Source: a virus. From it: a stretch of 36,615 nucleotides of DNA. Shown here piece by piece: positions 14,832 through 35,191 of the stretch (position 1 is the stretch's first letter; every line of letters begins with the position of its first letter). The translations under genes and the position numbers were made by a program. The stretch is taken from positions 1-36,615 of the IMG/VR virus record IMGVR_UViG_3300025128_000141; one strand, written 5' to 3'. Below the pieces are notes generated by a model. The model searched no databases. It saw only the letters and a program-made list of their open reading frames with translations, and was not told where the DNA came from.

Positions 14832-14837
14832 GAAAAA

Positions 14838-15092: not shown

Positions 15093-15202
15093 TGATGAAA
15101 AAGAAAAAAGTTAAAACAATAAAAAAAGTTATTAAAGGTTTAAAAAAAGCGTCTGCATCACACAAAAAACAAGCAAAGACATTAAGCAAAGCAATTAAAT
15201 GA
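15092..15202 (+). CDS. Lys-rich mini-protein (36 aa)
   Basis: The short frame begins MMKKKKVKTIKKVIKGLKK and has 16 Lys in 36 residues. It is coupled at both ends: TAATG with the gene before and ATGA with the GNAT gene after, which is strong support for a real gene despite its size. It could be a cationic helix binding DNA or membranes. No family assigned. Confidence 0.72.
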   Translation: MMKKKKVKTIKKVIKGLKKASASHKKQAKTLSKAIK

Positions 15203-15627
15203 TTGAAGTCCGTACAGACGACAATACAAAACAAGAAGCGTACGATTGGATAAAGAGCAGGGCGCATATAAACAGGGAGCTGGAAGAAAACGATAGACAT
15301 ATTGCTTTTTTAGTAGATAATAGTATTAAGGCATGTTTATTGTTTTCAGATTTTGATGGTTACAATATTTTTGTGCATTTAGCAATAGATGATGCAAGAT
15401 TGTGTCAAAGAAGATATATAAGATTGATGTTTGATTATGCTTTTAATCAATGCAAATGTGGTAGAATAACAGCTATGTGTGTTGATGGTTACAGAAGAAA
15501 CGAAAGATTACTGCAAGGTGTTGGTTTTGTAAAAGAAGGTGTAATTAGACAAGCAATGTTAGTAAATAATAAGTATGTAGATGCAGCTTTATACGGAATG
15601 TTAAAAGGAGAATGTAAATGGGTATGA
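15199..15627 (+). CDS. GNAT-type acetyltransferase-like protein
   Basis: The 142-residue protein matches the small acetyltransferase-like proteins found between terL and portal in many podoviruses. The N-terminus is MIEVRTDDN; the core has CLLFSDFDGYNIFVHLAID, RRYIRLMFDYAFNQCKC and RITAMCVDGYRRNERLLQGVGFVKEG, the last being the GNAT motif B region (G-F-x-x-EG). The classic acetyl-CoA loop (Q/R-x2-G-x-G/A) is not clear, RLCQRRYIR being only a partial match, so catalytic activity is uncertain and a structural or adaptor role is possible. Confidence 0.78.
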   Translation: MIEVRTDDNTKQEAYDWIKSRAHINRELEENDRHIAFLVDNSIKACLLFSDFDGYNIFVHLAIDDARLCQRRYIRLMFDYAFNQCKCGRITAMCVDGYRRNERLLQGVGFVKEGVIRQAMLVNNKYVDAALYGMLKGECKWV

Positions 15628-15830
15628 AGATGAAGCCAGAAATGCCGCCACCAATAGATACATCTGTTACAGATAGGACTGCCGAAAAAGAAGCAGCTGT
15701 CGAACAAGAAAGACAAAGAATGATCAAGGCAGGTAGAACAGGATTAGGCTATAGTATTATGACAGGTGGACAAGGCGTAACTGACGAAGCAAACGTTGGT
15801 AAAACTGTATTAGGAACAGGATCACGGTAA
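15618..15830 (+). CDS. Small putative virion protein, paralogue B
   Basis: The 70-residue protein begins MGMKMKPEMPPP, has a charged helix (TAEKEAAVEQERQRMIKAG) and ends SIMTGGQGVTDEANVG, then KTVLGTGSR. Those last 25 residues align with the C-terminal part of the 84-aa protein at 14838 with 16 identities, so the two are paralogues or share a docking motif. AAGGAG lies 6 bases before the ATG. The stop overlaps the portal start as TAATG, which suggests stoichiometric co-expression with portal. Confidence 0.8.
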   Translation: MGMKMKPEMPPPIDTSVTDRTAEKEAAVEQERQRMIKAGRTGLGYSIMTGGQGVTDEANVGKTVLGTGSR

Positions 15831-17503
15831 TGGCTGTTGCACAGGAAACACTTTCACCATACGATTATTTAAAAAAACGTATGAGCGCAATGACTAGCTC
15901 AAGAGAAACTTGGGAGGATCATTGGCAAGAAATACTAGATTATGTTATGCCAAGAAAAGCAGATGTAACTCTAGTCCGTGCAAAAGGAGAAAAAAGAACA
16001 GAGATACTATACGATAGCACAGCTATAACAGCTAACACTTTACTTGCCGCAAGTTTACAAGGCACACTTACATCACCATCACTACCGTGGTTTTCTATAA
16101 AATTACGCGACAAAGAATTAAATGAACAAAGAGATGCACAGCTGTGGTTAGAAGATACAGCTAGACGCATGTATGACGCATTTAATGACGCAAACTTTAA
16201 CACAGAAGTACACGAAATGTATCTTGATCTTACATCTATTGGTACAGGATGTTTGTTTGTAGAAGAAAACTCAAAAGGTTTTGCAGAGGGTGGCATACAT
16301 TTTAAAACATTACACATAAATGAATTTTACATACAAGAAAACGTAAATGGCTATGTTGATACTGTCTATCGCAAATACAAAATGACAGCACGACAAGCCT
16401 TGCAAGAGTTTGGTGAGGACAATCTCGGTGATAAGGTAAAAGAGGCAGCGCACTCTAAACCAGAAAAAGAGTTTGTTTTTATCCATGCTGTTGAGCCAGC
16501 AGAAGATTACACACGCATGACAGGTGAAAGTAATACTAAGTTAAAGTTTCATAGTTGCCATGCTTGTGAAGAGGACAAGATGATTGTTCGCTCTGGTGGT
16601 TACAACGAATTTCCATATCTCGTACCTCGGTGGGCAAAAGCGACTGGTGAAACATACGGTCGCAGTCCATCATATAATGCTTTGCCAGATATAAAAACAT
16701 TAAACAAAGCTGTAGAGATAGGACTAAAAGCATGGGCCAAAGCTATAGATCCACCATTGTTAGTACAAGATGACGGTGTTATAGGGCGTGTTAGGACAAC
16801 ACCAGCTGGTATTACTGTTATTAGAAATGATGGTGCAATCAAACCGTTACAAATAGGCACTAATTGGCAAATAACTGACATGAAGGAAACCCAATTACGT
16901 ACAGCAATAAGGCAAGCCTATTATTCAGACCAGTTGCAGTTACAAGATGGCCCTCAAATGACTGCTACTGAAGTGCAGGTTCGTTATGAACTAATGCAAA
17001 GATTGCTTGGCCCAACGCTAGGTAGATTCCAATCAGAGTTTCTAAATCCACTAATTGAACGTATTTTTGGTATTATGCTAAGAGCAGGGGCGTTACTCCC
17101 TCCCCCTGATAGCATACAAGAAACAAAGATGGACATTGAATACGTTGGGCCACTAGCAAGATCACAAAGAATGGAAGAAGCTAATGCAATAGACAGATTG
17201 TATCAGCTTGCTATGAACATTGCACAAATAAATCCTGCTGTTATGGAAATCATAAACCATGATGAAGCTGTCAGAATGAGAGCAAAACTACTTGGTGTAC
17301 CAAACAGTATACTTGTTAGCAGAGATGATGTTGCTGATGCAAGAGAAGCACAAGCACAACAAATGATGATGCAACAACAAATGATGCAAGAGCAACAAGC
17401 AGCACAAGTTACACAACAGCAAGCAGAAGCCGCAAAAGCTGTTGCTGATCCAGATGCACAAAAAGGCATACAACAAGCACAAGAACAACTACAAGGATTA
17501 TAA
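15830..17503 (+). CDS. Portal (head-tail connector) protein
   Basis: The 557-residue protein matches the T7 gp8-type head-tail connector family in length and N-terminal pattern (LKKRMSAMTSSRETWEDHWQ, then EILDYVMPRK and RTEILYDSTA). Other family-like stretches are ANTLLAASLQGTLTSP, GRSPSYNALPDIKTLN and TATEVQVRYELMQR. The dodecameric ring is the DNA channel and terminase docking site. The last 50 residues are Gln-rich and coiled (QQMMMQQQMMQEQQAAQ), longer than in T7. Translation is coupled to the paralogue B gene. Confidence 0.95.
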   Translation: MAVAQETLSPYDYLKKRMSAMTSSRETWEDHWQEILDYVMPRKADVTLVRAKGEKRTEILYDSTAITANTLLAASLQGTLTSPSLPWFSIKLRDKELNEQRDAQLWLEDTARRMYDAFNDANFNTEVHEMYLDLTSIGTGCLFVEENSKGFAEGGIHFKTLHINEFYIQENVNGYVDTVYRKYKMTARQALQEFGEDNLGDKVKEAAHSKPEKEFVFIHAVEPAEDYTRMTGESNTKLKFHSCHACEEDKMIVRSGGYNEFPYLVPRWAKATGETYGRSPSYNALPDIKTLNKAVEIGLKAWAKAIDPPLLVQDDGVIGRVRTTPAGITVIRNDGAIKPLQIGTNWQITDMKETQLRTAIRQAYYSDQLQLQDGPQMTATEVQVRYELMQRLLGPTLGRFQSEFLNPLIERIFGIMLRAGALLPPPDSIQETKMDIEYVGPLARSQRMEEANAIDRLYQLAMNIAQINPAVMEIINHDEAVRMRAKLLGVPNSILVSRDDVADAREAQAQQMMMQQQMMQEQQAAQVTQQQAEAAKAVADPDAQKGIQQAQEQLQGL

Positions 17504-20115: not shown

Positions 20116-20697
20116 ATGATGGTAACAGAAGTTTCTATATGCAGTAACGCACTAAGGCGATTAGGTGATGATCCAATCACTAGTTTGACAGATGACACAG
20201 AAAGAGCAAGATTGTGTAATGCGTTTTACGAAGATGCAAGAGATCTTACATTGCGTTCACATCCGTGGAATTTTGCTATTACAAGAGCTGCGTTAGCACA
20301 ACTCAGCACAACCCCAGCATACGGATTCGATTACATGTATGCACTTCCAACAGATCCATATTGTCTGCGTGTGTTAGAAATGGAATTTGCAGATTATATA
20401 TTTAAAATAGAGAATGACGCTACAAACGGTAGAGTATTATTATCTGATGAAAGCACAGCAAAAATACTTTACATAGCAAAAATTACAAATCCTACATTAT
20501 TTGATTCAATGTTTACAGAAACATTAACAGCAAAATTATCTGCCGATCTTGCTTATCCAATAACAGGCAGTGTGCAGTTGCAATCACAAATGGAAAAACT
20601 ATATAGAGATAAACTATCTGAAGCCAGAAGTGTTGATGGAATGGAAGGATTTGTAGATGACTTTGTTTCAACAACATTTACGGACTTTAGAACATAA
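20116..20697 (+). CDS. Tail tubular protein A (adaptor, gp11-like)
   Basis: The 193-residue protein begins MMVTEVSICSNALRRLGDDP, then ITSLTDDTERARLCNAFYED and LTLRSHPWNFA. These are hallmarks of the podovirus tail tube A/adaptor family that docks below the portal. A second ATG at 20119 gives the same protein less one Met. The last part is helical (KLSADLAYPITGSVQLQSQM). It is coupled to the tail tube B gene by TAATG at 20695-20699. Confidence 0.9.
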   Translation: MMVTEVSICSNALRRLGDDPITSLTDDTERARLCNAFYEDARDLTLRSHPWNFAITRAALAQLSTTPAYGFDYMYALPTDPYCLRVLEMEFADYIFKIENDATNGRVLLSDESTAKILYIAKITNPTLFDSMFTETLTAKLSADLAYPITGSVQLQSQMEKLYRDKLSEARSVDGMEGFVDDFVSTTFTDFRT

Positions 20698-23159
20698 TGG
20701 CAAGAGTACATCCCTTTCAATCAAATTTTACTGCTGGTGAATTAAGTCCTAAATTAGCTGGACAAATTGACTTCAAAAAATATGCTAATGGTGTAGAAAC
20801 ATTAGAGAACATGACTATTTTTCCACAAGGCGGAGCAGCACGAAGATATGGCACAAGATATATAGGCCCAGTAAAAGATCACACAAAAACAACAAGACTA
20901 ATACCTTTTGAATTTAATGATGAACAAACTTATATATTAGAGTTTGGACACCAGTACATAAGATTTTATAAAGACGAAGGTATAATTACAGAATCTAACA
21001 AAACTATAAGTGGTATAACACAAGCTAATCCTGCTGTAGTAACTGCAACATCACATGGTTATACAAACGGTGATGAAGTCATAATTACAGGTGTTGTAGG
21101 CATGACAGAAGTAAACGGAAAAAGATTTAAAGTTGCAAACAAAACTACAAACACTTTTGAATTACAAACACTAGCTGGTGTAAACATAAACAGCACTAGC
21201 CATACTGCATACGGATCTGCAGGTGTCGCTAATAAAATATACGAAATTACAACTACTATTACAGAATCTATATTATATGAAATACAACATACACAATCAG
21301 CAGATATTATGTATATTGTGCATGAAACATTAGCACCGCAAAAACTTACAAGAACTGGTCATACATCATGGAGCATAACAAATGAAGTGTTAGAAAATGG
21401 CCCATATTTAGACGCTAATACTACATCTACAACACTAAATCCTGCATCTACAGCAATAGCTACAGGTGTTGCGTTGGTTGCATCAGCTGATTTATTTGCT
21501 GCAACAGATGTAGGTAGGTTAGTAAAATTACATAGTGGTCATGCTAAAATTACAGCGTTTACAGATGCACAAAATGTTACAATAGAAATACTAGCAACAT
21601 TATCTGCCAGCACAGCTACAACAGATTGGCAACTAGGAACATTTGTATCAACGCTAGGATTCCCTAGAACAGTTACATTTTTTGAACAAAGGTTAGTATT
21701 TGCTGGCACAACATCATTTCCACAAACTATATTTGCATCACAATCAGGACTGTATACAAACTTTGATGTTGGTACAGCAGCTGCGGCTGACGCATTTATA
21801 TATACAATAGCTGCAAACAAAGTAAATGTTATAAGATGGTTAGCTCCTGCAAGAGATTTAATTGTTGGTACAGCAGGTGGTGAGTTTAGGGTAGGAAAGC
21901 CTACAGGTGAGCCATTAAAACCAGATAATGTCAATATTACATTACAAACAACTTATGGAGGCAACACAACAGAGGCAGTGCAAATTGGCAACGTAATTTT
22001 ATTTGTGCAAAAACAAAGAAAGAAAATTAGAGAGTTTGCGTACAGATTTGATGATGACGCATATTCTGCACCAGATATGACCATACTTGCAGAGCATGTT
22101 ACTGGCACAGGTGTATATGACATAGCATGGGCGCAAGAGCCAGAAAGTATTTATTGGGCAGTGCGTGATGATGGAATATTGTTAGGAATGACATATAAAC
22201 GTGAAGAGGATATTATAGCGTGGCACAGACACATACTAGGTGGATTTGTAAAACATTCTTTTAACGCAGGCACTGCTTTAACAGCAAGTGGATCAGACAC
22301 ATTAAAAAATGGCAAAATAACTATAACATCACACGGATACACAACAGGAGATGCAGTTGTATATGATGCTAATGGCAACACTGCTATAACAGGATTAGAT
22401 GATGGCAGAACATATTATGTGTATGTTATAGACGCAAACACAATAAATCTTGCTAGGACTTATCAACAAGCAATTGACAGAACAGTCCAACAATTAATTG
22501 CTGTTGGATCTGGCACACACATATTAAAAAATCATGCAAAAGTAAAATCTATAGCATCTGTTTCTAGTGATACTGAAAATGAAGTCTACGTTATTGTGGA
22601 AAGAATTATAGATGGATCAAGAGTGCAATACGTAGAATACTTAGATAGCACACTAAATATGGATAGCTCATTAAGTGGTTTAATAAATGGTGCTGATGGC
22701 ACGTTGACAAATCTGGATCACTTAGAGGGTGAAAGCGTACAAATACTTGTAGGTGATGCTGTGTACCCAAATCAAACTGTAAGTAACGGACAAATATCAG
22801 TAACTTTACCATCAACAAGTGGGCAGCATTTAGTAGAGGTTGGTTTAGGTTATACTAGCAAATTAGTAACTATGAAAATAGAAGCAGGAGCAAATGCTGG
22901 CACTGCACAAAACAGGCCAAAAAGATTTAACGAGATAGCAGTAAGATTGCACGAAACTGTAGGTGTAACAATAAATGGCGACCAGATACCTTTTAGATCA
23001 TCATCTACACCAGTTGGTCAAAACATTCCAGAGTTTACAGGAGATAAAAAAGTAACTAATCTAGGATGGGATACAGACGGACAAGTAACGATTGAGCAAA
23101 CACAACCTTTACCAATGACAGTGCTAGGAATAACTGGTACACTAGTAACAAGCGATTAG
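20697..23159 (+). CDS. Tail tubular protein B / nozzle with inserted beta domains
   Basis: The 820-residue protein opens with FQSNFTAGELSPKLAGQIDF, then ENMTIFPQGGAARRYGTRYI, the classic start of the podovirus nozzle (gp12-like or stabilisation) protein. The propeller-like body includes GFPRTVTFFEQRLVFAGT, ARDLIVGTAGGEF and ESIYWAVRDDGILLGMTYKR. Two small beta domains are inserted. Residues about 104-178 (SGITQANPAVVTATSHGYTN, then GDEVIITGVVGMTEVNGKRF) resemble the FCCH-like domain of phage tails, and residues about 535-612 contain HGYTTGDAVVYDANG and a similar loop. It is coupled to tail tube A. Confidence 0.92.
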   Translation: MARVHPFQSNFTAGELSPKLAGQIDFKKYANGVETLENMTIFPQGGAARRYGTRYIGPVKDHTKTTRLIPFEFNDEQTYILEFGHQYIRFYKDEGIITESNKTISGITQANPAVVTATSHGYTNGDEVIITGVVGMTEVNGKRFKVANKTTNTFELQTLAGVNINSTSHTAYGSAGVANKIYEITTTITESILYEIQHTQSADIMYIVHETLAPQKLTRTGHTSWSITNEVLENGPYLDANTTSTTLNPASTAIATGVALVASADLFAATDVGRLVKLHSGHAKITAFTDAQNVTIEILATLSASTATTDWQLGTFVSTLGFPRTVTFFEQRLVFAGTTSFPQTIFASQSGLYTNFDVGTAAAADAFIYTIAANKVNVIRWLAPARDLIVGTAGGEFRVGKPTGEPLKPDNVNITLQTTYGGNTTEAVQIGNVILFVQKQRKKIREFAYRFDDDAYSAPDMTILAEHVTGTGVYDIAWAQEPESIYWAVRDDGILLGMTYKREEDIIAWHRHILGGFVKHSFNAGTALTASGSDTLKNGKITITSHGYTTGDAVVYDANGNTAITGLDDGRTYYVYVIDANTINLARTYQQAIDRTVQQLIAVGSGTHILKNHAKVKSIASVSSDTENEVYVIVERIIDGSRVQYVEYLDSTLNMDSSLSGLINGADGTLTNLDHLEGESVQILVGDAVYPNQTVSNGQISVTLPSTSGQHLVEVGLGYTSKLVTMKIEAGANAGTAQNRPKRFNEIAVRLHETVGVTINGDQIPFRSSSTPVGQNIPEFTGDKKVTNLGWDTDGQVTIEQTQPLPMTVLGITGTLVTSD

Positions 23160-23168
23160 GAGAATAAA

Positions 23169-23609
23169 ATGTTTTTTGGATTATTTGGATCATTAATAAA
23201 CGCAGCATTTACTATGCAAGCTGCTAACCAACAAATAAAAATGATGCAAGCAAATGCAGCTTGGCAAAAATATGAGGCAAAGTTAAACAACGAATACGAA
23301 AAACAAAAACGATTGACAGCGCAACAAAAGTTGTTGAGCGAACAAAGAGCAAGAGGCGCAGCATCTGGTATTGTTGTAGGAACTGGTAGTAGTTTAATTT
23401 CTATGAACGCTGACATGGAAGAGTTTGAAACAGATCTATGGTTTTTAGAAAAAGGTTTATGGGCAGAAAACAAAACTATAGACGCAGAGTTAGCAGGAGA
23501 AATAGCAGCTGTAAATTATCAAGCAGGATCTAGCATATTAGGCGGATTTATGAAAGCTGGATCGCAATCATCAAGAATGAGTATTGCCCAACAATACGGT
23601 ACAATTTAG
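23169..23609 (+). CDS. Internal virion (ejection) protein, gp14-like
   Basis: The 146-residue protein has a hydrophobic N-terminus (MFFGLFGSLINAAFTMQAAN), a helical charged region and the recognisable RARGAASGIVVGTGSSL turn found in small podovirus core proteins. In T7 the counterpart is ejected and inserts in the outer membrane. It is first in a row of three ejection-type genes, between nozzle and tail fibre, which is the conserved order. Confidence 0.82.
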   Translation: MFFGLFGSLINAAFTMQAANQQIKMMQANAAWQKYEAKLNNEYEKQKRLTAQQKLLSEQRARGAASGIVVGTGSSLISMNADMEEFETDLWFLEKGLWAENKTIDAELAGEIAAVNYQAGSSILGGFMKAGSQSSRMSIAQQYGTI

Positions 23610-23621
23610 GAGAAATTGTTT

Positions 23622-25577
23622 ATGGTAGTAATTCCAAGATATCAAAGCTCGCTAGGATCAGCTCCCATTAGATCTGGCAGAAGAATCACAACAGGTACAG
23701 GTGCAGCTAGTGGTTTAGCAGAATTAGGAAAAACTATATCTGAAGGTTTAAATTCTTACAGCGAGCAAAAAATTGCTTTAACTGCAAAATTAAGAGATCA
23801 AGAAATAATAAATAAGAGTTTACTAGCAGATTCGGAAGCAAAAACAATAAACTCTAATTTTGTCAATAACTATTTGGATACAATAGAAGATTATAGAGAG
23901 TATAATACAGAGTATGACAGATACTGGAAAACTAGAGAAGAAAATATAAAAAAGAAATTTTTTACTGTAGGTGGTGAATTAGATCAAGTTGCATGGGAAA
24001 GATACCAACCTAATTATTGGGCAGAGTACGTAGATGGTAAAACAAAAGTAAACGCAAAAGTAGCAGAGGCAAGGAACTACGAAACAATTACAACATACAG
24101 GAATTGGTATGAAGGTGTAAACACAGATATTGAAAATTCAAAAACAATAGCACAACTAACATCAAAATATAAAGAAGCAAACGCTTTGTGGAGCAGCTAT
24201 GAAGGTAATCAAACTTTTGCAGATCAAGATATTGCGCAAGCAAAAGAAGAACAGTTACGAAAATTTAATGATCGTTATTTTATATTACAGGCCACAAGAT
24301 TAAGTGAAAATGGCAAAGAGCCTACTTACGTAAATCCAGATGGTGTTAGAGTTGTTGATTATGGAGACATTGCAAATCTATTATCTAACCAAGCTATCAA
24401 ATACAAAGATATAACTGGCAGGACAGTAGATTTTGACAATGAAGATTTGCAAGCCTTGATAAAAGAAATGCAACAACAAGGCTCAACACAAATGAATTTT
24501 GATACAAACAGAAGAGCTAATTTGGGAAAACAACAATACGCTAAATATATAGAGAATGTATTAAATAATATAACACCAAATGGGGTTAGTAATGATGAAT
24601 ACAACACAGCTATAACTCAATTAAATACTGATGAATACAGTCAAATGAATCCAGAAGATAAAGATCAAATCATAAATGCACTAAATAGTGCAGTTAATAG
24701 AAGTGATGTAAAAGCTAATCAGCAAGCAGAACAACGTAAAGCAACAAATGAAGCAGAAGCTGATTTAAATTATACTAAATTTCAAATATTAATTGGCACT
24801 GGTATATTTGATTCAGCGGAAGAAATAAATATTATTAGACAATTAGGTTTTGAAGGACATTTCGGTAATAATAATGTGCAAACATTAGTAGATCAATCGA
24901 TAGATTTACAAGATGAAAGAAATTCTTGGAAAGCAGAATCATTTAAAAGAGGTGTGCAAACACTTGGAACAGCTATCGGAGTAACTTACAATTTTGACGA
25001 GCAAAACAGGTACACAGATTTTTCTTCAGGTACATCTTTTTTAGAAAGTAAACTCGACTCAGGTAAAAAATTAAAGATAGACGGATTACAAGGAATGATG
25101 TTCACTGAATTATCACGACTAGTAAAAATAGGGGAGGATAGAGGAATAAGTCATTATGATATGTTAGAAAATGTAGAATCACCTAATTACCTTATTACAC
25201 CAATAATACAAAAATATAACAAAGAATTAAGTAAAGCTATTGCTGGAGAATACGATAAAATGCTAAATAATACTTTTGATAGAGGGGATGCAATTATAGT
25301 ACTTGGTAATAAATTTTTAATGAAAGAATCATTTTTTGATGACCAAAAGATGACATCTAAGCAAGGAACAACACAAATGACACCTAACTTGACAGATCCA
25401 GCAAACGGTGTAGATTTACCATTATTTAAAAAAGACCAAGAAACTGTAGATATGTATTTATCCAGATTAGATCAATTTTTAAAAAATAATCCTACTACAG
25501 CAAGCAAAGATATACCTAGCATTTTAACAACTGCATCTGATAGTTTTGCTGATGGTATTATTGTAGACAGCGAGTAG
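23622..25577 (+). CDS. Internal virion (ejection) protein, gp15-like
   Basis: The 651-residue protein starts with VVIPRYQSSLGSAPIRSGRR. I choose ATG 23622 because AGGAG (23608-23612) is 9 bases upstream; a TTG at 23616 is only 3 bases from it. The protein is mostly helical and polar with long charged helices, as in the second ejection protein of T7-like phages, and has no clear enzymatic motif. Order (gp14-like, then this, then the giant protein) is the main evidence. The gp15 counterpart forms part of the periplasmic DNA channel. Confidence 0.75.
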   Translation: MVVIPRYQSSLGSAPIRSGRRITTGTGAASGLAELGKTISEGLNSYSEQKIALTAKLRDQEIINKSLLADSEAKTINSNFVNNYLDTIEDYREYNTEYDRYWKTREENIKKKFFTVGGELDQVAWERYQPNYWAEYVDGKTKVNAKVAEARNYETITTYRNWYEGVNTDIENSKTIAQLTSKYKEANALWSSYEGNQTFADQDIAQAKEEQLRKFNDRYFILQATRLSENGKEPTYVNPDGVRVVDYGDIANLLSNQAIKYKDITGRTVDFDNEDLQALIKEMQQQGSTQMNFDTNRRANLGKQQYAKYIENVLNNITPNGVSNDEYNTAITQLNTDEYSQMNPEDKDQIINALNSAVNRSDVKANQQAEQRKATNEAEADLNYTKFQILIGTGIFDSAEEINIIRQLGFEGHFGNNNVQTLVDQSIDLQDERNSWKAESFKRGVQTLGTAIGVTYNFDEQNRYTDFSSGTSFLESKLDSGKKLKIDGLQGMMFTELSRLVKIGEDRGISHYDMLENVESPNYLITPIIQKYNKELSKAIAGEYDKMLNNTFDRGDAIIVLGNKFLMKESFFDDQKMTSKQGTTQMTPNLTDPANGVDLPLFKKDQETVDMYLSRLDQFLKNNPTTASKDIPSILTTASDSFADGIIVDSE

Positions 25578-25579
25578 AC

Positions 25580-28500
25580 ATGCCATTAAGATTATCTGTT
25601 ACAGATTTAAAAAGAGCAGGTTTTTCTGATGACGTAATAATGACGCACATAGAAGATATGCGTCCAACATTAAGAGAGGCTAATTTTTCAGAAAAAGAAA
25701 TAGATGATTACTACGGTATTGTTAGAATTGACAAGCCACTAGAGCCACCAACACAAAACACAAGTTTATTAGCAACAAATAATACTTCTAAAGACATAGA
25801 AGTAGACACAAAAAAATCTCATCCTTTAGATTCAACAACATTAACATCAAAAGAAGCACAAATTGCATCTGGCAAAACAAACGAAGAATTACCTATAGCA
25901 GGAGAGGGTATTTTAAATTTAGATACTGATAAAGTAAAAACTGAAACAGAAGCAATAGCTAATGCAGAAATAGAAGATCCTAAATTTTTTGAACACAATC
26001 AAGCTGCTTATGAAAACAGAAGAACAGACATACAAGACTTAGAAGCAAAAGCACAAGCAGAAAGATTAAAAGAAGGCAGTGTATTTTTAGATGAATTAAG
26101 TGATGCACAAGTTGATAGATATTATAAAGATGGTGGTAATTTAGAAATTGATGGTAAAAAAATAGAAGTTATAGACAGAGTAAAAAAATACAATGTTGAT
26201 GGCGCTCCACAAACAGAAATATTAAATACATTTGATACAACTGGCACATATACAAAAATGGGCCTAATGAAAATTGAACAAAATTTAGATGCAACAGACA
26301 TACAATTAATTAATTTAAATGAAGGTTTAAGTTTTATAGCAGCTTACGAAAGTAACAATGCAAACATTAGAAGTAGAAATGATGACAAAGGTGGTTTGTT
26401 TCAAATACCAGACGAAGAAATGCCAGAATTATTAGATTTAATTGCAAATGATTTTTCTGCAATAGATGCAAGTTGGGCAGCGCCACAATGGTTTCAGCTA
26501 GGTTATTCACACAAAGATGCAACAAAATTACCAGTTGAATTTCAAAGAGCATTAGCACTAAAAAAATTAACAAAAGATCCACAAGCCACAACATTGCTAA
26601 AGGAAGCTATGGATGGTAACGAACAAGCGTGGATAGATCTTGTAAATAATTATTACAATGCAGACGGACTTACTGTGCCAGAAGCGTCAGAAAGATTAGA
26701 AAGTTATTTTAGTAAATTTAATACAAGTGATTATAGATTTGTGAATGGGGCAAAAGCATTTTTTGCTGATAGAGATGACACCTCATGGGCAGGTTGGGTA
26801 ACAAGAGTTACAGAAGATAAACTTGGAAAAACATTTGTAAGAAATTTAGGAGGTCAAGGACATGTAAATGTTTTTGGCTCAGGCGGAGGAGATTTAAGTA
26901 TTGACGGTTTATCAAAAATATGGGCCACACAAATAGATGAATACGGTTACACTCCTCAAGAGGCGTACATAAATGTTATGATGCTACAAAATCATAATTT
27001 TTCATTAGATTTGATAGAAGAACTTAGACGTTTTACAGAAGGTGGTGATTGGAAATATGGAGCTGGTGGTGCATTAACTGGTGCAGCAATAGGAGGAACT
27101 ATTACAGTAAGCACAGGTGGATTTGGATTAATATTATTACCGTCATTTATTATAGGTGGTGGTTATGGTGCTATTGAAACAATGAGAACTAGGTATGGCG
27201 ATATGATAATGAACGGAGAAGCAAATACACCAGATGAATTTTGGGATACTATGATCTCTTTTCAAACAGCAAAAGAATACGCAAAAAATACTACTGTCGG
27301 TACAGCTAGTGCTGCTACTGGTTTTTATCTTCATAAAAAAGGATTAAAAACTGCTGCGATAGCTGGTGAAATATCTACGTTTGTAGGACTGCAATCACTT
27401 TTATCGCAAACAATGCCGACAAAAGAAGAATTTGCACAAGTATCAGCAATGGTTTTTGGTTTTGCAGGTGCAACTAAAGGCATGGGAAAAATGGTAGAGT
27501 ATTATAAAAAATACGGTATAAAACCAGCTGATTTTTATAGAATGTCAAAAGATCCAAACTTTAGAGAAGAAATTTATAATACCGAAAGCGACCTATTTTC
27601 ACCTATAGATAATATTAACGATCAAATGATACAAATAGCAGAAAACAAAACTAACATAATATTAACTCCAAATCCAAAACATGAGTTAAATACAGTTGTT
27701 GAAACAAGTGCTTCTGGCACTGAAGTAGGTAGAATAGTAGACGTAAGAAAAGACGATTTTGGTAGCACAATACTTAAACTAGATAAAGACGGTGAAGAAG
27801 TATATGTCAAAGAAGCTGAAACAAGTCCTGCACTAAAAGATAATGATTACGAAATAGAAATAGATGCAAATGAATTTGTAACCATACAAAGATCTGTGCT
27901 TGCTGGTTTTAAAGAAAAACAAAATAACAAACAATTTAATGATGACATAATTGAATACAGAACTGATAAAGAAAATTTACCACTTAATAACGAACTGCTT
28001 GATGGTGAGTTTTCTAAGTTTGGTACAGAAAAAAATGGTATCGCTACACGTTCTATAGTTGGATCACACAAAATGTTTGTTGATAAAAAGACATATCCAG
28101 AGTTAGCAGATGTAATAAAAAGAAATACAACAAAAGCAACAAAATACAATACCAAAAGTGAGTTTCTATCTAAAAATTTTAAAAACATAAACAACAAAAA
28201 ATCAACGCTAGTAGACGAAGTATTTGCTGTAAAAAGAAATGGTTATTCACGTTTTAATTTTGACGCAATGATATTAAGAGAAAAACAACGATACTTTGCA
28301 ATACCATTAAATATATACGAATCATTAAAAACAAAACCAAAACAAACAGTAAGGTTTCAATTTGTAAATAATGTATTGGTTGTAACAAATGATTTAGATA
28401 ACAAGATTGTTGCAGCTGTTAGAACACAACAAATAACAGGCCCACTTAAATACCAAGCAGACAATTACTATCGTAACTATGTGCGTAATAACGATAAAGT

Positions 28501-31500
28501 TTACACTACAAATGCTTACGCAAACAAATCAGATGGTCAAGATGATTTTTTACAAATGCCAGACGAAATACCAATAAATGAAAATTTATCCGAATTACCA
28601 AATATGCCGAAATTTAATCCACATGCTAACATGTTATACAATTCAGCAAAAGGTTTGACTACATTTGATTTAATAGAATTATCAAGATCATTAATGGAAA
28701 ACCCAATAATTATGGGTAAGACTGGAAGAGCTTATGGTTATTTTCAATCATTAGCAGATTCCATTAACAGGGAAACTGGCGAGATAGTTAGGACAGCATC
28801 TTCAGATAAACAAAGAGAAGTTATGCGAATAGTAATACAGAGAGAAATACAAGCAAATCCAAAATTGCTAACAGCAACTATAGCTCACGAAATAGGACAT
28901 TTAGTAGATTATATAGGCAGAAACCGTGAAGATTATACACTTAGTAGAGGTAATATATTAGGTAGGTTGGTTGCGTTACGTCAATTTTTAAATGAATTTA
29001 TTGATCCAGATGGGAAAGCATCTAGCGGACTAACAAAAGAAGAAATATTAGAAATTAGAAAAGACGCAGAAGCATACGCAGCAAAAGAAATCAAAAGAAC
29101 AGAAGAAGTTCTATCTTCAAAATATGGCATAACTCCAGAAATATTAAGAAAAGTATACACTGATGCAAGAATAAAAGAATTGATTGATCCAGACATTTAT
29201 GGAGAATTGGTAAAATTATCAAACGAATTAAAAGTTGCTATAGGTAGAGATGCTATAAAAAATATGGTAAATCCATACGTTGATAAAATCATAGCAAAAA
29301 TAAAAGGCGAAAAAACTAATACAAAAACTGACAAAGAGTTTGAAGCTAGAGCTATGGAAATTTTTGTAAAAAATGTTGAAAATGCAATTAGGGAAAGAGG
29401 TTTAGTACGTGCGACAGATGTAAGAAAAGAATTAATACGATTAACAGAAAGATGGCACCCTTACGATAGAGAAAAATCAATGACAACTCCAAGAGGACGA
29501 GCTTATGTAAAATACAGGGAAAGCAGTAGAGAGTTGATGGCTGAATTTATGATGGCATTTTTAACAAGGCCAAGATGGACAATGGCAAACGCACCAAAAG
29601 CAAGTGAGTTGTTTGTAAAATACATGTCAGAAAGAAAAGAAGTTGCTGACATTTACAATGAGATACAAGCTGACATAAATGCTAGAGCTGCTACTGGTGG
29701 ATCTACAATAATAGCTAACAGAATAATAAAACATTTTATTACAGCAGATAAACGATTAGCTGAACAAACACAAAATTTATGGCAAAGAAGCAAAGGAAAA
29801 GGATTATCACATCAATTTTTTATAGACTATGTTGATACTTCTGCATGGATGTATAAAAGTGCTTACAAGTTAGCACGATCACACAAAGCAATAGATAGAA
29901 AGACTGGTAAATTCATAAAAGGTAGTAGAGCAATAAATCAAAATTTTTTAGAAGCTATAAACGAAATAGAAAGATATACATATAAAAATTCTGTGCAACA
30001 ATATTATACAGATAGTATGGTAAACAAAGTTTTACGACCACTAACAAATTTAGACAGCTCACACAATAGATATTCATTAGCCTTAATGTTGTTATTAAAA
30101 AATTTAGGAACATCCGCACAAAGAGCTAATGTTGCAAATCCTTATGGATTGTGGACTGATATACAAAAAATTACAAAACTAGCAACTAATGACGACATAA
30201 CTATATCAGGTCAAGAAGGTGTTATAATTTCAAAAAAAGATATAGATGAATATGTAAACGAAGGCAGAACTCCTTTTGATTTGTATCAAGATTATAGAAA
30301 AGTACACCCAGATTTAGGCAAACTAGCAGACAGATTTGCAGAAGTCAGAGATGAAATAATGCGCCCATTATTACAAGAATCTGGTGCATTTAGCGTAGAA
30401 GAATTAACAGATATGTTCCGTAACTATAGTTATATTACCTTTAATCCAATAGACAAAGCATTAGTAAATTTGGAAGCAACAGCAGGATTTACATTGGCAG
30501 CTGCATCTTTTAACAGAGGTACAAAAGGAGATATTACAGATATAGTAAATCCACTAGATGCTACTATGGAAAAAGACTTAATGTTAGTAGGAATGTTAAT
30601 AAGAAACTCTGCTGTTATAAAAACTATCAGAGCGTTGGTAAAAAACAAGTCAGAGTTAGAAACAATGGATAGTGCAATGATGGCAAAAAAAGGATTTCCA
30701 GATTTTAAAGATAGAATAATAACATTCCTAAAAAAAGACAAAAACGGAAAACCAATAGATGTACCTAAAGAATTACGCAGAGGCACAGAAATAATTTCTT
30801 GGAGAGAAAAAGGCAAAATACAATACGCTAGAATTAATGAGTATGCAAAAGCAGCCATAGATAAAGATCCGTACAGAGCTATAAATGAACTTGAATTTGG
30901 ACTAGGCGGAAGTATGGCGATATACAGATATATTTGGACAGAAATAAATCCTACATTCTGGGTAACGCAAACACTGCAAGACGTACAAAGAACATACAAA
31001 AATATACCAGAAATAAAATTACTAGGTAAACACGGTTTTTTAAAATACATGTTGAAGAACATGCCGAGAGCTTACAGGTTGTCTAAAGGACACTATGATG
31101 ACGTTACAAGAGATATGATGACGCAAGGATTTTTAATTTCTAACGCAGATGGATACAGGGGGCAAGCTGGTGGCAAAAGATTATTAGAATCATACAAGAG
31201 AGGTGATTTAACTAACGATCAGTACGACTTAGAACTTTTTTTACAAAAGATGGATGAAAAAGAATTTATCAAAACACAAAATAACATAAGCACTTTTTTA
31301 AAAAGAGTTTCAGATGTAGCTTGGACAGCAGAAAGACTTACAAAAATAGCAGCGTATGATCTGGTAAAAGACTTACAAAAAGAAGGTAAAATAACTTACA
31401 CCCCTGATGAGGTAATCCAAATTGCTAGACAAAGAGGAGGTGGCCCACATTTAGCTGTAAAAGGCAAAAAAGCAGTATTAGCAAATGGCGTTTTTACTTT

Positions 31501-32527
31501 TTTTAATGCAATACTAAGAGGTTGGGAAGGCGATTACAGATCATTTAGAGCAAATCCTATGAACTGGATGTTTAAACAATCAATAATAATGGGGCCGAAA
31601 TTATTAGAAATTGCAGCTAGATTTGGATTGTTCGGTGCAGCAATATACGCATACTCTAAAAGCATAAGTCAATATGACCAAGATAATTTTATAAATATAC
31701 CTATAGCTGATTTTACAGATAAAGAAAACTCAAACGTAGAGTATGGAAAATTAGTTTATCTAAGAATACCATTAGATCCAACTGGTAGGTTATTCAATGG
31801 TTTATTAAATCAAACAGCAGACGCAATAGCAGGTGTACCAGAAAGAGGATCTGTAGGATCAAGAATTATTGATGGTTTGGTCAATGACACATTTCCAACA
31901 TTTAATCCAATAATAACTGGTGTTCAAGATTTAGTACAATTTTTATCAGGAAATAATGTGTATGATGAATATTCAAACAGTGTTGCAATAGACCAGAATG
32001 TTATGAGAAGAGGTGGTAGAGAAAAAAATATTGAGATTTTAAGATATTTCTATAATAACTATGGCCCATCAACTTTGTATAGACTAGAAACAAATAACGA
32101 AGATGAAATACTAACAGAACTAGAAGAACTATTAAGTTATCCAGTCGGTCAACAGTTAGGTAAATTTATAAGAGTAGGTGATTATCCAATAGCAGATGAT
32201 ATTAGAGAAATGAAAATATTAGCTGACGAGTTTAGAAATGATGTAGACTTGTATGCACAAAGAGCAATTAAAAAAATACTTTTAGGACAAGAAAACAAAA
32301 TAACAGAAAAAGAAAACCAAGCATTGTACGTTAAAAATCCAGATTTAGCTAACAACAAAGGAATACTAAGAGAGTTAATATCAGAAGCACAATTACCAGA
32401 TTTTGTTTTTGATATAGTAAGTGAAACAGATAAAAAAGTACGAGAAAATTTGTGGCACATATACATTGAAGAACATGCAGCAGATCCAGATAAGGCAAGA
32501 AGGTTACGAGAATATTTTGAAAATTAA
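25580..32527 (+). CDS. Giant polyvalent ejection protein: transglycosylase plus metalloprotease
   Basis: At 2315 residues it is far larger than T7 gp16 (1318). In order: acidic N-terminus; lytic-transglycosylase-like domain at about 247-390, with AAYESNN (E257) and KGGLFQIPDEEM; a Gly-rich hydrophobic segment around 500-535 (GGALTGAAIGGTITVSTGG); a zinc metalloprotease motif HEIGH at 1103-1107 with a possible third ligand in RELMAEFMMAFL (E1318 or E1322); and a long C-terminal region with TEINPTFWVTQTLQDVQR near 1790 and VLANGVFTFFNAILRGWEGD near 1970, typical of large polyvalent proteins of podoviruses. It starts 2 bases after the previous stop. Probably injected with the DNA to cross the wall and membrane. 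Confidence 0.85.
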   Translation: MPLRLSVTDLKRAGFSDDVIMTHIEDMRPTLREANFSEKEIDDYYGIVRIDKPLEPPTQNTSLLATNNTSKDIEVDTKKSHPLDSTTLTSKEAQIASGKTNEELPIAGEGILNLDTDKVKTETEAIANAEIEDPKFFEHNQAAYENRRTDIQDLEAKAQAERLKEGSVFLDELSDAQVDRYYKDGGNLEIDGKKIEVIDRVKKYNVDGAPQTEILNTFDTTGTYTKMGLMKIEQNLDATDIQLINLNEGLSFIAAYESNNANIRSRNDDKGGLFQIPDEEMPELLDLIANDFSAIDASWAAPQWFQLGYSHKDATKLPVEFQRALALKKLTKDPQATTLLKEAMDGNEQAWIDLVNNYYNADGLTVPEASERLESYFSKFNTSDYRFVNGAKAFFADRDDTSWAGWVTRVTEDKLGKTFVRNLGGQGHVNVFGSGGGDLSIDGLSKIWATQIDEYGYTPQEAYINVMMLQNHNFSLDLIEELRRFTEGGDWKYGAGGALTGAAIGGTITVSTGGFGLILLPSFIIGGGYGAIETMRTRYGDMIMNGEANTPDEFWDTMISFQTAKEYAKNTTVGTASAATGFYLHKKGLKTAAIAGEISTFVGLQSLLSQTMPTKEEFAQVSAMVFGFAGATKGMGKMVEYYKKYGIKPADFYRMSKDPNFREEIYNTESDLFSPIDNINDQMIQIAENKTNIILTPNPKHELNTVVETSASGTEVGRIVDVRKDDFGSTILKLDKDGEEVYVKEAETSPALKDNDYEIEIDANEFVTIQRSVLAGFKEKQNNKQFNDDIIEYRTDKENLPLNNELLDGEFSKFGTEKNGIATRSIVGSHKMFVDKKTYPELADVIKRNTTKATKYNTKSEFLSKNFKNINNKKSTLVDEVFAVKRNGYSRFNFDAMILREKQRYFAIPLNIYESLKTKPKQTVRFQFVNNVLVVTNDLDNKIVAAVRTQQITGPLKYQADNYYRNYVRNNDKVYTTNAYANKSDGQDDFLQMPDEIPINENLSELPNMPKFNPHANMLYNSAKGLTTFDLIELSRSLMENPIIMGKTGRAYGYFQSLADSINRETGEIVRTASSDKQREVMRIVIQREIQANPKLLTATIAHEIGHLVDYIGRNREDYTLSRGNILGRLVALRQFLNEFIDPDGKASSGLTKEEILEIRKDAEAYAAKEIKRTEEVLSSKYGITPEILRKVYTDARIKELIDPDIYGELVKLSNELKVAIGRDAIKNMVNPYVDKIIAKIKGEKTNTKTDKEFEARAMEIFVKNVENAIRERGLVRATDVRKELIRLTERWHPYDREKSMTTPRGRAYVKYRESSRELMAEFMMAFLTRPRWTMANAPKASELFVKYMSERKEVADIYNEIQADINARAATGGSTIIANRIIKHFITADKRLAEQTQNLWQRSKGKGLSHQFFIDYVDTSAWMYKSAYKLARSHKAIDRKTGKFIKGSRAINQNFLEAINEIERYTYKNSVQQYYTDSMVNKVLRPLTNLDSSHNRYSLALMLLLKNLGTSAQRANVANPYGLWTDIQKITKLATNDDITISGQEGVIISKKDIDEYVNEGRTPFDLYQDYRKVHPDLGKLADRFAEVRDEIMRPLLQESGAFSVEELTDMFRNYSYITFNPIDKALVNLEATAGFTLAAASFNRGTKGDITDIVNPLDATMEKDLMLVGMLIRNSAVIKTIRALVKNKSELETMDSAMMAKKGFPDFKDRIITFLKKDKNGKPIDVPKELRRGTEIISWREKGKIQYARINEYAKAAIDKDPYRAINELEFGLGGSMAIYRYIWTEINPTFWVTQTLQDVQRTYKNIPEIKLLGKHGFLKYMLKNMPRAYRLSKGHYDDVTRDMMTQGFLISNADGYRGQAGGKRLLESYKRGDLTNDQYDLELFLQKMDEKEFIKTQNNISTFLKRVSDVAWTAERLTKIAAYDLVKDLQKEGKITYTPDEVIQIARQRGGGPHLAVKGKKAVLANGVFTFFNAILRGWEGDYRSFRANPMNWMFKQSIIMGPKLLEIAARFGLFGAAIYAYSKSISQYDQDNFINIPIADFTDKENSNVEYGKLVYLRIPLDPTGRLFNGLLNQTADAIAGVPERGSVGSRIIDGLVNDTFPTFNPIITGVQDLVQFLSGNNVYDEYSNSVAIDQNVMRRGGREKNIEILRYFYNNYGPSTLYRLETNNEDEILTELEELLSYPVGQQLGKFIRVGDYPIADDIREMKILADEFRNDVDLYAQRAIKKILLGQENKITEKENQALYVKNPDLANNKGILRELISEAQLPDFVFDIVSETDKKVRENLWHIYIEEHAADPDKARRLREYFEN

Positions 32528-32569
32528 ATGCTACTAAAATAATACGAATGGTGTATAATAGGAGGCGAT

Positions 32570-35191
32570 ATGACCATAACAACTACCATAGCAAAAAACA
32601 GTTACTCTGGAAACGGAAGTACAACAGTATTTGCGTACCAGTTTAAAATACTTGCACAAGGCGATTTGCAAGTAATTCTTAGATCGTCTACAGGAACAGA
32701 AACAGTACAAGAAATAACAACACACTACACTGTATCAGGTGTAGGATCAGCAACTGGTGGTAATGTAACATTCGGATCTGCACCTGCATCTGGTGTAACA
32801 GTTGTTATTAGAAGAGCTACTACACAAACACAAACTGTTGATCTTGTAGAAAACGATCCATTTACAGCAGAAACAGTAGAAACTGCTTTTGACAGATCTA
32901 TCATACTAGCACAAGAGTTGCAGGAACAAGTTGAGAGATCACTAAAAATTTCACGCACAAACACTATGACCTCTACAGACTTTACTACTTCTGCAACTGA
33001 TAGAGCAAACAAAGTATTAGCATTTGACAGTAGTGGTGAATTAGCAGTTACACAAGAGATAGGAACATTTAAAGGTAACTGGGCAGCATCAACAACATAC
33101 GCTGTCAGGGATATAGTAAAAGACACAAGCACTAACAATATATTTATAGCAAAGACAGCACACACATCATCTGGATCACAACCTCTTACAACAAACACAG
33201 ATAGTGGAAAGTGGGATTTATTAGTAGATGCTGCTAGTGCTACAACAAGTCAAAGCGCAGCAGCTACATCAGCAACAGCCGCAGCAAGCTCTGCTACAGC
33301 AGCTGCCTCATCTGCGTCAACAGCGTCTGGCCACAAAGACACAGCAACAACACAAGCATCAAATGCCTCTACATCTGCTAGTAATGCTGCTAGTAGTGCT
33401 ACTGCTGCCGCTAGTAGTGCAACAGCTGCTGCTGCATCATTAGACAGTTTTGATGATGTATATTTAGGCGCAAAGTCAAGTGATCCAAGTGTAGATAATG
33501 ATGGTGATGCACTGGCTACAGGAGCATTATATTTTAACTCATCTAGTGATGCTCTAAAATACTACACAGGTAGTGCTTGGGTAGCAATAACAGCAACTAC
33601 TTCAGTAAGTGATTTATCAGATACAAACATTACAAGTCCAGCAGACGGATCATTGTTATTGTATGATACAGGCACATCAAAATACATTGACAACGTTATT
33701 AGTGGTGATGCTACACTAGCTGATACTGGCGCATTAACAATTGCAAATGACGCAATAACAGGAGCAAAGATTGCTGATGATGCTATAAACAGTGAGCATT
33801 ACACAGACGGATCTATAGATACAGCACATATTGCAGATTTAAATGTTACACAAGGTAAGATTGCAAACGAAGCAATAAACGAGGCAAAAATGCAAATAAG
33901 TAACTCACCTGTAAATGGTTACATGTTGACAGCACAGTCTGGTAATACAGGTGGATTAACATGGGCAGAAGCACCTAGCGGTGGTGGATTTAGTTTAGCT
34001 TCAGCGTTATCTGGTACAACACCTACAATAGACTGGTCTAGTGCTACAGCTTTTAGCCATACTTTATCTGGCGATACTACATACAGCTTTTCTAATGTAC
34101 CAAGTGGAGGAGAGGTAGAATTATTCTTAAAAAATGTAGGAAAATCATTTGATTTATTATCACAATTTGCACCAGATGCGACAGAAAATTTCTCGGGACA
34201 AAAAGGTACGGAAAGAATTAAGGGTAGTTTCTTCAATGCAGATGGTACAAAATTTTATTTGGCAGGTGAAGATGGTAGTTATTCAATACATCAGTATGCT
34301 CTATCTACTGCTTATGATGTCAGTACAGCATCTTATGAAAGTAAGGTATCACCATCTTTTGGATCATCTATAAGAATACATGGTCTTACATTTAATGGTG
34401 ATGGCAGTAAATTAATTGCGGCAAGAGGTAATGATCTATATGAGTATACTGTCAGTACTCCTTATGATATTAGCACAGTATCTGGTACAGCAAATCATAG
34501 TATTGTTATGGACACACCTTTAGGTTTAAATGCAAGTGCAGACGCTTATTTTGTTAATATTAGATTTAACAACAATGGCACACTAGCTTATTTACAGAAT
34601 ATGCGACACCAAGATCATAGTTCTTACCCAAATGCTAAAGGTGCTTACATTATTAGTTTAAGTACAGCATATGATATCGACTCAACTTTAACATTAATGT
34701 CTAGTGCAGACTTTTCATTAGACTCAGCAAGAGGTTATACAAATAGAACGGGAGAAATAGGTGGTGATATATCTGCTGACGGCACTACAATAGTAGTTGT
34801 TGAGGAAGGACTTGATACGAGTGCCTCAAGATTTGCAGTACATAAATTTTTCTTAAAAACCCCATGGGATTTATCTGGAGAATCTTTGACATACGTTGGT
34901 AGACAACTTTATGATCAAGCTCTGAGTGGTTCAACAAATGTCTACAATGTAAGGCTAACACCAAATGGCAAACATTTTTATTACAATGAATATGACGCAG
35001 GTGATTCTGGTAATGCCATAACACGAATACACAATATATCAGGCAATTATTCTGTAAACTTTCCAACTGCAACAAGTGGTAAGCCTTCAACTTTTGGTGA
35101 TGGTGCTGACCCAACAACAACAACATACACAAGATTAGTATCATTAGATGGGACAAACATTTTGATTACAGACCACAGAGAGATTGGCTAA
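32570..35191 (+). CDS. Tail fibre with T7-type N-terminus and propeller-like tip
   Basis: The 873-residue protein has a T7 tail-fibre N-terminal attachment domain at about 1-135 (YSGNGSTTVFAYQFKILAQG, then VTVVIRRATTQTQTVDLVEN and SIILAQELQEQVERSLKI). A CBM-like patch follows (FKGNWAASTTYAVRDIVKD), then an Ala/Ser/Thr shaft at about 221-290. The C-terminus (about 545-873) has four copies of a (S/T)-x-x-Y/W-D-(V/I/L) unit (STAYDVSTASY, STPYDISTVSG, STAYDIDSTLT, KTPWDLSGES), each preceded by a D/N-G-T/S-K/L strand, suggesting a beta-propeller receptor-binding tip. AGGAGG precedes the ATG. Confidence 0.9.
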   Translation: MTITTTIAKNSYSGNGSTTVFAYQFKILAQGDLQVILRSSTGTETVQEITTHYTVSGVGSATGGNVTFGSAPASGVTVVIRRATTQTQTVDLVENDPFTAETVETAFDRSIILAQELQEQVERSLKISRTNTMTSTDFTTSATDRANKVLAFDSSGELAVTQEIGTFKGNWAASTTYAVRDIVKDTSTNNIFIAKTAHTSSGSQPLTTNTDSGKWDLLVDAASATTSQSAAATSATAAASSATAAASSASTASGHKDTATTQASNASTSASNAASSATAAASSATAAAASLDSFDDVYLGAKSSDPSVDNDGDALATGALYFNSSSDALKYYTGSAWVAITATTSVSDLSDTNITSPADGSLLLYDTGTSKYIDNVISGDATLADTGALTIANDAITGAKIADDAINSEHYTDGSIDTAHIADLNVTQGKIANEAINEAKMQISNSPVNGYMLTAQSGNTGGLTWAEAPSGGGFSLASALSGTTPTIDWSSATAFSHTLSGDTTYSFSNVPSGGEVELFLKNVGKSFDLLSQFAPDATENFSGQKGTERIKGSFFNADGTKFYLAGEDGSYSIHQYALSTAYDVSTASYESKVSPSFGSSIRIHGLTFNGDGSKLIAARGNDLYEYTVSTPYDISTVSGTANHSIVMDTPLGLNASADAYFVNIRFNNNGTLAYLQNMRHQDHSSYPNAKGAYIISLSTAYDIDSTLTLMSSADFSLDSARGYTNRTGEIGGDISADGTTIVVVEEGLDTSASRFAVHKFFLKTPWDLSGESLTYVGRQLYDQALSGSTNVYNVRLTPNGKHFYYNEYDAGDSGNAITRIHNISGNYSVNFPTATSGKPSTFGDGADPTTTTYTRLVSLDGTNILITDHREIG
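33230..33440 (+). repeat. Ala/Ser/Thr low-complexity shaft of the tail fibre
   Basis: About 70 residues made of units such as SATAAASSATAAASSAS and SNAASSATAAAS, encoded by gct/gca/agt-type triplets. Such stretches form the flexible or coiled shaft of trimeric fibres and change length easily in frame. Confidence 0.8.

What the first reader, a model, noticed from the sequence alone, without database searches (positions are those of the whole stretch)
25580..32527. 2315-aa ejection protein joining a transglycosylase with an HEIGH metalloprotease motif
Seen: E257 with GGLFQI in a lysozyme-like context, HEIGH at 1103-1107, and ELMAE about 215 residues later as possible third zinc ligand. T7 gp16 has only the transglycosylase. 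A protease delivered by the tail could digest periplasmic or cytoplasmic host proteins at entry, or process other ejection proteins. The C-terminal part has the NPTFW-like pattern of polyvalent proteins injected with phage DNA.
Basis: partly seen in the sequence, partly recalled or inferred. Interest (0 to 1): 0.62.

Follow-up and report, generated by a model that had tools for sequence, protein, structure and literature searches.

The report
Ejected phage protein with built-in protease
A marine phage related to viruses of SAR11 bacteria makes one giant protein, probably carried in its particle and shot into the host with its DNA, which joins a cell-wall-cutting domain to a strictly conserved zinc-protease domain that probably cuts this protein into working parts, a known kind of phage protein in a new lineage.

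Summary
ORF 25580-32527 encodes 2315 aa with E257/GGLFQI, HEIGH at 1103-1107, ELMAE at 1318-1322 and NPTFW at 1790-1794. HExxH alone is not above chance (3 DNA matches in the window, 2.3 expected). Conservation makes it real: H1103, E1104, G1106, H1107 and E1318 are invariant in 37 non-redundant relatives and in an 87-row superfamily alignment. A deep-alignment AlphaFold2 model (pLDDT 80) has the zincin order (helix, three strands, HExxH helix, Glu helix), and its ten best PDB alignments are mostly recognisable zinc-peptidase folds (IrrE/PprI, anthrax lethal factor). The N-terminal lysozyme-like site aligns with T7 gp16-type transglycosylases by profile only; its fold was not tested. The C-terminal ~900 aa is LPD38-like. 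This is a phage-type polyvalent protein, a class already described (Iyer et al. 2017) with zincin, lysozyme and LPD38 domains. New here: in two HTVC010P-type pelagiphages the transglycosylase and LPD38-like parts were found in separate proteins and no zincin was found; in this lineage they are fused, with the zincin between. I favour processing of itself or of co-ejected proteins over digestion of host proteins; no proteolysis has been shown.

The parts
25580..32527 (+). giant ejection-type protein gene, 2315 aa
   Evidence: open frame; relatives of 2250-2500 aa in IMG/VR and in Pelagibacter phage Baldr
26252..26839 (+). aa 225-420: lysozyme-like / SLT-type transglycosylase segment
   Evidence: motif spacing E-(14)-GLFQ; hhalign vs T7 gp16-type domains P=6e-5, score 35.6 vs shuffled maximum 16.8; Pfam SLT not matched; fold not predicted
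26348..26350 (+). codon of E257, predicted catalytic Glu of the transglycosylase
   Evidence: E in 26 of 29 relatives
27047..27499 (+). aa 490-640: Gly/Ala-rich hydrophobic segment
   Evidence: sequence; the equivalent part of the Baldr protein (561-707) matches the giant protein of a Manatee Spring phage, 31% identity, 5e-13
28622..29614 (+). aa 1015-1345: zincin metallopeptidase domain, including an inserted helical subdomain
   Evidence: invariant catalytic residues; AF2 model pLDDT 79.9 with the zincin order of elements; best PDB alignments mostly zincins
28886..28900 (+). HEIGH (H1103, E1104, H1107)
   Evidence: 37/37 relatives; 87/87 in the superfamily alignment
28970..29428 (+). aa 1131-1283: helical stretch between the HExxH helix and the Glu helix
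   Evidence: L099 and L100 lack roughly 90 residues of it; all-helical in the model
29429..29431 (+). codon of E1284, invariant acid of unknown role
   Evidence: 87/87
29531..29545 (+). ELMAE: E1318 predicted third zinc ligand; E/D1322
   Evidence: E1318 37/37 and 87/87; the alignment ends with IrrE (model 325 = chain 127, model 324 = chain 126) put E1318 at IrrE E113, needed for metal binding (PMC7848106); read from the end offset, not from a printed residue map
29900..32524 (+). aa 1441-2315: C-terminal LPD38-like part, containing NPTFW
   Evidence: hhalign against an LPD38-bearing protein, 340 columns, P=1.4e-6, score 59.9 vs shuffled maximum 28.3; LPD38 hits in relatives
23169..23609 (+). 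146 aa internal virion protein (gp14-like)
   Evidence: phrog_418 'internal virion protein', 6.2e-6
23616..25577 (+). 653 aa protein in the position of T7 gp15
   Evidence: position only; a weak GemA-like hit below its cut-off
32570..35191 (+). tail fibre gene following the giant gene
   Evidence: tail protein PHROGs, best 3e-36

Best explanation
The gene encodes a phage-type polyvalent ejection protein in the T7 gp16 position. Supported by sequence and predicted structure: an N-terminal transglycosylase-like segment, a hydrophobic Gly/Ala-rich segment, an apparently intact zincin metallopeptidase (H1103, H1107 and E1318 as zinc ligands, E1104 as general base), and a C-terminal LPD38-like region. 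Inferred: it is packaged and ejected with the DNA, the first domain opens peptidoglycan, and the zincin cuts this protein (or a co-ejected partner) during assembly or entry, separating the cell-wall and membrane part from the LPD38 part. The domain anatomy I hold at about 0.85; the processing role at about 0.45.
For: Catalytic residues invariant over 37 relatives and 87 superfamily members. Zincin order of secondary structure at pLDDT 80, and the top ten PDB alignments are IrrE/PprI (Z 5.7-6.3), anthrax lethal factor (Z 5.3-6.1) and a mycobacterial regulator (Z 6.3-6.4). Module logic: in Pelagibacter phages HTVC203P and HTVC010P the transglycosylase (1.9e-22) and the LPD38-like part (3.5e-13) were each found in a protein without the other, and no zincin was found in the segments held, whereas here they are one chain with the zincin between. 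The zincin plus C-terminal region is also shared with giant proteins carrying quite different N-terminal enzymes (helicases, RadC, DNA methylases, ART, Zeta toxin), so its substrate is likelier to be a constant one such as the protein itself. Iyer et al. 2017 propose self-processing for this domain class and cite processing of phage P1 DdrB.
Against: No proteolysis or processed product has been observed. N4 virion RNA polymerase carries an HExxH zincin-like domain yet is packaged unprocessed (N4 structure PMC12633501). No cleavage site was sought. Structural Z-scores are middling (about 6), and Foldseek gave no PDB match at E <= 0.001. The transglycosylase fold was not predicted. HTVC010P and HTVC203P were compared through one genome segment each.
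Confidence: 0.5

Rival explanations
1. The zincin is an effector: after ejection it cleaves host periplasmic or cytoplasmic proteins, for example defence proteins or a regulator as IrrE/PprI does.
For: Iyer et al. 2017 list host targeting as an alternative. The fold resembles IrrE/PprI, a site-specific protease of a repressor, and lethal factor, an injected protease.
Against: The domain keeps its place between payload and C-terminal part while payloads change completely, and it recurs across very different phage contigs, which fits a constant substrate better. No host target is known.
Confidence: 0.25
2. The domain is structural: it keeps a metal site but serves packaging or ejectosome assembly without proteolysis.
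For: In N4 virion RNA polymerase the region that includes the zincin is required for encapsidation and the protein stays unprocessed.
Against: The general-base Glu (E1104) is as invariant as the ligands (87/87), which a purely structural metal site would not need. Loss of a ligand was seen in one relative only (HELGQ, L155).
Confidence: 0.2
3. HEIGH and ELMAE are chance motifs in a helical structural protein.
For: The HExxH DNA pattern is at chance frequency in the window.
Against: Invariance at about 21% mean column identity over 87 sequences and a zincin-type predicted core.
Confidence: 0.02

Closest known systems
Phage-type polyvalent proteins with zincin MPTase domains (Iyer et al. 2017, PMC5512222)
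   Same: very large multidomain proteins of phages; HExxH helix plus a Glu on a second helix with a variable insert between; Asp three residues after HExxH; lysozyme and LPD38 partners
   Different: this lineage carries an extra helical insert of about 90 residues, has a transglycosylase as its only recognised payload, and no Pfam, NCBIfam or PHROG model names the window protein
Pelagibacter phage EXVC032P Baldr giant protein (WDQ27601.1)
   Same: same gene position, 2329 aa, all catalytic motifs conserved, about 26% identity
   Different: diverged; annotated only as hypothetical protein
Ejection proteins of HTVC010P-type pelagiphages (HTVC203P gp47, HTVC010P ORF 14832-16346)
   Same: related transglycosylase and LPD38-like modules and the same gene order around them
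   Different: modules sit in separate, smaller proteins and no zincin was found
T7 gp16
   Same: position among the virion core genes and a transglycosylase-like active site
   Different: not known to carry a zincin; the window segment is not recognised by the SLT model
N4 virion RNA polymerase C1 domain
   Same: HExxH domain in a giant ejected protein; weak motif-driven profile similarity (score 30.1 vs shuffled maximum 22.8)
   Different: polymerase payload; reported as packaged unprocessed
IrrE/PprI (M78-like) protease
   Same: predicted core aligns at Z 5.7-6.3 over about 97 residues; E1318 falls at IrrE E113 by alignment end
   Different: cellular regulator with other domains; Z too low to claim family membership

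Membership tests
Zincin metallopeptidase superfamily | HExxH with two His ligands and catalytic Glu | tested here: met
   37/37 relatives and 87/87 superfamily rows
Zincin metallopeptidase superfamily | third acidic ligand on a later helix (gluzincin type) | tested here: met
   E1318 invariant, in predicted helix 309-322 of the model; metal geometry itself not measured
Zincin metallopeptidase superfamily | core fold: N-terminal helix, three-strand sheet, HExxH helix, Glu helix | tested here: met
   predicted only: H21-31, E36-39, E46-49, E76-80, H87-108, H309-322 at pLDDT 80; top PDB alignments mostly zincins at Z about 6, no Foldseek hit at E <= 0.001
Phage-type polyvalent MPTase (Iyer et al. 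2017) | Asp three residues after HExxH (given for one widespread clade) | tested here: met
   D1110, 37/37 and 85/87
Phage-type polyvalent MPTase (Iyer et al. 2017) | conserved His at the end of strand 2 (same clade) | tested here: inconclusive
   no His column other than the motif reaches 85% in the 87-row alignment, but strand numbering in the paper could not be matched
Phage-type polyvalent protein | same domain found fused to other known polyvalent payloads | tested here: met
   relatives carry RadC, SNF2/Helicase_C, LPD3, ddrB-ParB, ART-PolyVal, Zeta toxin, DNA methylases
Phage-type polyvalent protein | delivered into the host with DNA | not testable with these tools
   inferred from gene position only
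LPD38 (PF18857) | curated Pfam match of the window protein | tested here: not met
   no match at E <= 0.01
LPD38 (PF18857) | homology to an LPD38-positive protein | tested here: met
   hhalign 340 columns P=1.4e-6 against P0005 (LPD38 4e-35); three C-terminal relatives match LPD38 at E <= 0.01
SLT / T7 gp16-type transglycosylase | curated SLT profile match | tested here: not met
   PF01464 finds nothing in the window at E <= 10
SLT / T7 gp16-type transglycosylase | catalytic Glu and ES..GLxQ signature in register | tested here: met
   hhalign P=6e-5 with Glu and GLFQ in register, above 60 shuffles
SLT / T7 gp16-type transglycosylase | lysozyme-like fold | not tested
IrrE/ImmA (M78) | closest fold and sequence match | tested here: inconclusive
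   Z 5.7-6.3 tied with other zincins; Peptidase_M78 only 0.27 in one relative
any peptidase | proteolytic activity | not testable with these tools
   needs an assay

The most novel reading that the evidence does not exclude
The ejection machine of this pelagiphage-like lineage is made as a polyprotein: modules that sister phages encode as separate ejection proteins are fused around a built-in zincin that releases them during assembly or on entry into the host.
Probability: 0.35. Interest if true: 0.7.

Novelty: new member of a known kind. Interest (0 to 1): 0.42.

Why it matters
Zincin domains are the commonest domain of phage and plasmid polyvalent proteins (Iyer et al. 2017), yet what they cut is largely unsettled. 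This lineage offers a clean natural comparison: related phages of one host group with separate modules and no zincin found, against phages with fused modules and a strictly conserved zincin. It makes the processing hypothesis directly testable in a cultured relative (Baldr on Pelagibacter HTCC1062), and it gives a function-based name to a protein now annotated only as hypothetical in phages related to those of one of the most abundant groups of ocean bacteria.

Tried and rejected
Pfam, NCBIfam, PHROGs and PDB sequence searches of the window protein gave no real match. The best, phrog_10756 at 0.003, covers only the HEIGH stretch. A first AF2 model with 14 sequences was poor (pLDDT 60) and its structural matches were helical noise; a model from 87 sequences replaced it. 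Foldseek of the second model against PDB and viral models gave no informative hit beyond one unnamed viral protein, A0A516M8A8. A genome-contig scan found no confirmed cellular relative. hhalign of the transglycosylase profile with the single T7 sequence failed; with a nine-sequence T7-type profile the local comparison succeeded and the global one failed, so the similarity is limited to the active-site stretch. The zincin against the N4 domain is only weakly above shuffles. tblastn of a related zincin in deposited phages found only Baldr. Bcep22, a likely carrier of a comparable giant protein, is not in the collection under the two accessions tried. Two queries failed because of wrong frames.
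Full report
The observation. The HExxH pattern by itself is weak evidence, since it occurs three times in the window DNA with 2.3 expected. What matters is conservation.

Relatives. The only relative found in 50,697 deposited phage records is a 2329 aa hypothetical protein of Pelagibacter phage EXVC032P Baldr, about 26% identical over most of its length and in the same gene position. IMG/VR gave 2, then 3, then 17 and then 70 loci, and with a broader alignment 244 relatives, of which 80 were kept. No cellular genome contig was confirmed. The major capsid protein places the window phage with Baldr (78%) and the HTVC010P-type pelagiphages (about 60%). A host has not been shown for the window phage itself.

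The zincin. In 37 non-redundant relatives H1103, E1104, G1106, H1107, D1110, N1125, Y1312, R1313, E1318, L1319, A1321, P1331, A1338 and P1339 are invariant; position 1322 is D in 30 and E in 7. In an 87-row alignment with 21% mean column identity, H1103, E1104, G1106, H1107, E1284, E1318 and P1331 remain invariant. A locus needed to match only one of the search patterns, so conservation of both motifs is not forced by the search. One relative outside the alignment has HELGQ (L155). So E1318 is the likely third ligand and E1322 a supporting acid, as in the ExxxD arrangement of gluzincins (general knowledge). E1284 is equally invariant and unexplained.

Structure. A first model from 14 sequences was poor. 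The model from 87 sequences reaches pLDDT 79.9, pTM 0.68, and its elements run helix, strand, strand, strand, HExxH helix (model 87-108, motif at 96-100), helical insert, Glu helix (309-322, E1318 at 311). The ten best PDB alignments are a mycobacterial regulator (Z 6.3-6.4), IrrE/PprI (5.7-6.3) and anthrax lethal factor (5.3-6.1); lower rows include a protease of DNA-protein-crosslink repair, abylysin, selecase, a predicted zincin and ACE among unrelated helical proteins. The lethal factor rows cover residues about 62-258, its N-terminal part. Foldseek alone gave nothing significant, its top row being another zinc peptidase, LTA4H, at E 0.25. Z about 6 is middling, so I rest on the combination of order of elements, conservation and consistency of the list. 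The IrrE alignments end at model 325 = chain 127 and 324 = chain 126, which puts E1318 at IrrE E113, one of the residues needed for metal binding and proteolysis (PMC7848106). That is read from the end offset, not from a printed residue map.

The insert. L099 and L100 have a compact form in which roughly 90 residues between HExxH and the Glu helix are missing. The corresponding stretch is all-helical in the model.

The transglycosylase. The Pfam SLT model finds nothing in the window. A profile of 29 relatives against nine T7 gp16-type and related domains gives P = 6e-5 with the catalytic Glu and GLFQ in register, score 35.6 against a maximum of 16.8 in 60 column-shuffled controls. The match covers the active-site stretch only. 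One clade (L019, L021, L096, L098) replaces Q275 by R, two of its members have D for E257, and L049 has V. The zincin residues are kept in all of these, so the protease is the more constant of the two predicted activities.

The C-terminus. Pfam LPD38 is not matched by the window protein itself, but it is by related proteins, and a profile of the C-termini of this lineage aligns with an LPD38-positive protein over 340 columns at P = 1.4e-6, score 59.9 against 28.3 in shuffles.

The wider family. Relatives of the zincin sit in proteins of about 1100-3600 aa (some cut by contig ends) whose N-terminal parts carry RadC, SNF2 and other helicases, DNA methylases, LPD3, ddrB-ParB, ART-PolyVal, GGDEF, DnaJ or Zeta-toxin domains. 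Iyer et al. 2017 (PMC5512222) describe this class: zincin MPTases as the commonest domain of polyvalent proteins, fused to lysozyme and LPDs, with HExxH on one helix, Glu on the next, variable inserts, and in one widespread phage clade an Asp three residues after HExxH. D1110 fits.

Mechanism. In HTVC203P the transglycosylase lies in a 964 aa protein (1.9e-22), in HTVC010P the LPD38-like part lies in a 504 aa protein (3.5e-13), and no zincin was found in the segments held of either phage. In the window lineage the two modules are one chain with the zincin between them. This is what a self-processing polyprotein would look like, and it matches the proposal of Iyer et al. for the class and the processing of P1 DdrB they cite. 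Against it, N4 virion RNA polymerase has a zincin-like domain and is packaged whole. Packaging, ejection, peptidoglycan cleavage and proteolysis are all inferred here.

Selection. Against the closest relative (L002, 91% identity) dN/dS is 0.12-0.50 across ten segments, 0.39 and 0.21 for the two catalytic parts of the zincin, so the gene is under purifying selection throughout.

Verdict. A well-supported zincin in a polyvalent ejection-type protein: a new member of a known kind, with an informative natural comparison that makes its role testable.

Noticed in passing
window 28610-29614 (aa 1011-1345) against L002: Synonymous divergence is 0.30-0.41 over the zincin but 0.10-0.17 elsewhere in the gene, as if the domain had been exchanged between close relatives.
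   Followed up: no
L019, L021, L096, L098; L049: Transglycosylase signature decays (Q275 to R, E257 to D or V) while the zincin stays intact.
   Followed up: partly
window 29429-29431: E1284 is invariant in 87/87 sequences with no assigned role.
   Followed up: no
L155:1913-9367: Relative with HELGQ in place of HExxH, a possible inactive copy.
   Followed up: no
window 20697-23159: The 820 aa tail protein matches Pfam E1_FCCH (ubiquitin-activating enzyme domain) above cut-off, 6.5e-11 at residues 113-178.
   Followed up: no
window 156-1406: 416 aa ORF with an MgtE_N match slightly above cut-off (1.9e-6).
   Followed up: no
window 6321-7169: RepB-type primase domain match (4.7e-10).
   Followed up: no
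window 24001-33000: G+C falls to 0.32-0.33 over the giant gene region against 0.36-0.41 in the rest of the window.
   Followed up: no
L013:6825-12692 and L016:17218-23328: A second very large ORF (1956 and 2037 aa) lies downstream of the giant gene, without HExGH.
   Followed up: no
L001 (OQ414636.1): The Baldr record carries locus tags named after another phage (EXVC031PHodr).
   Followed up: no
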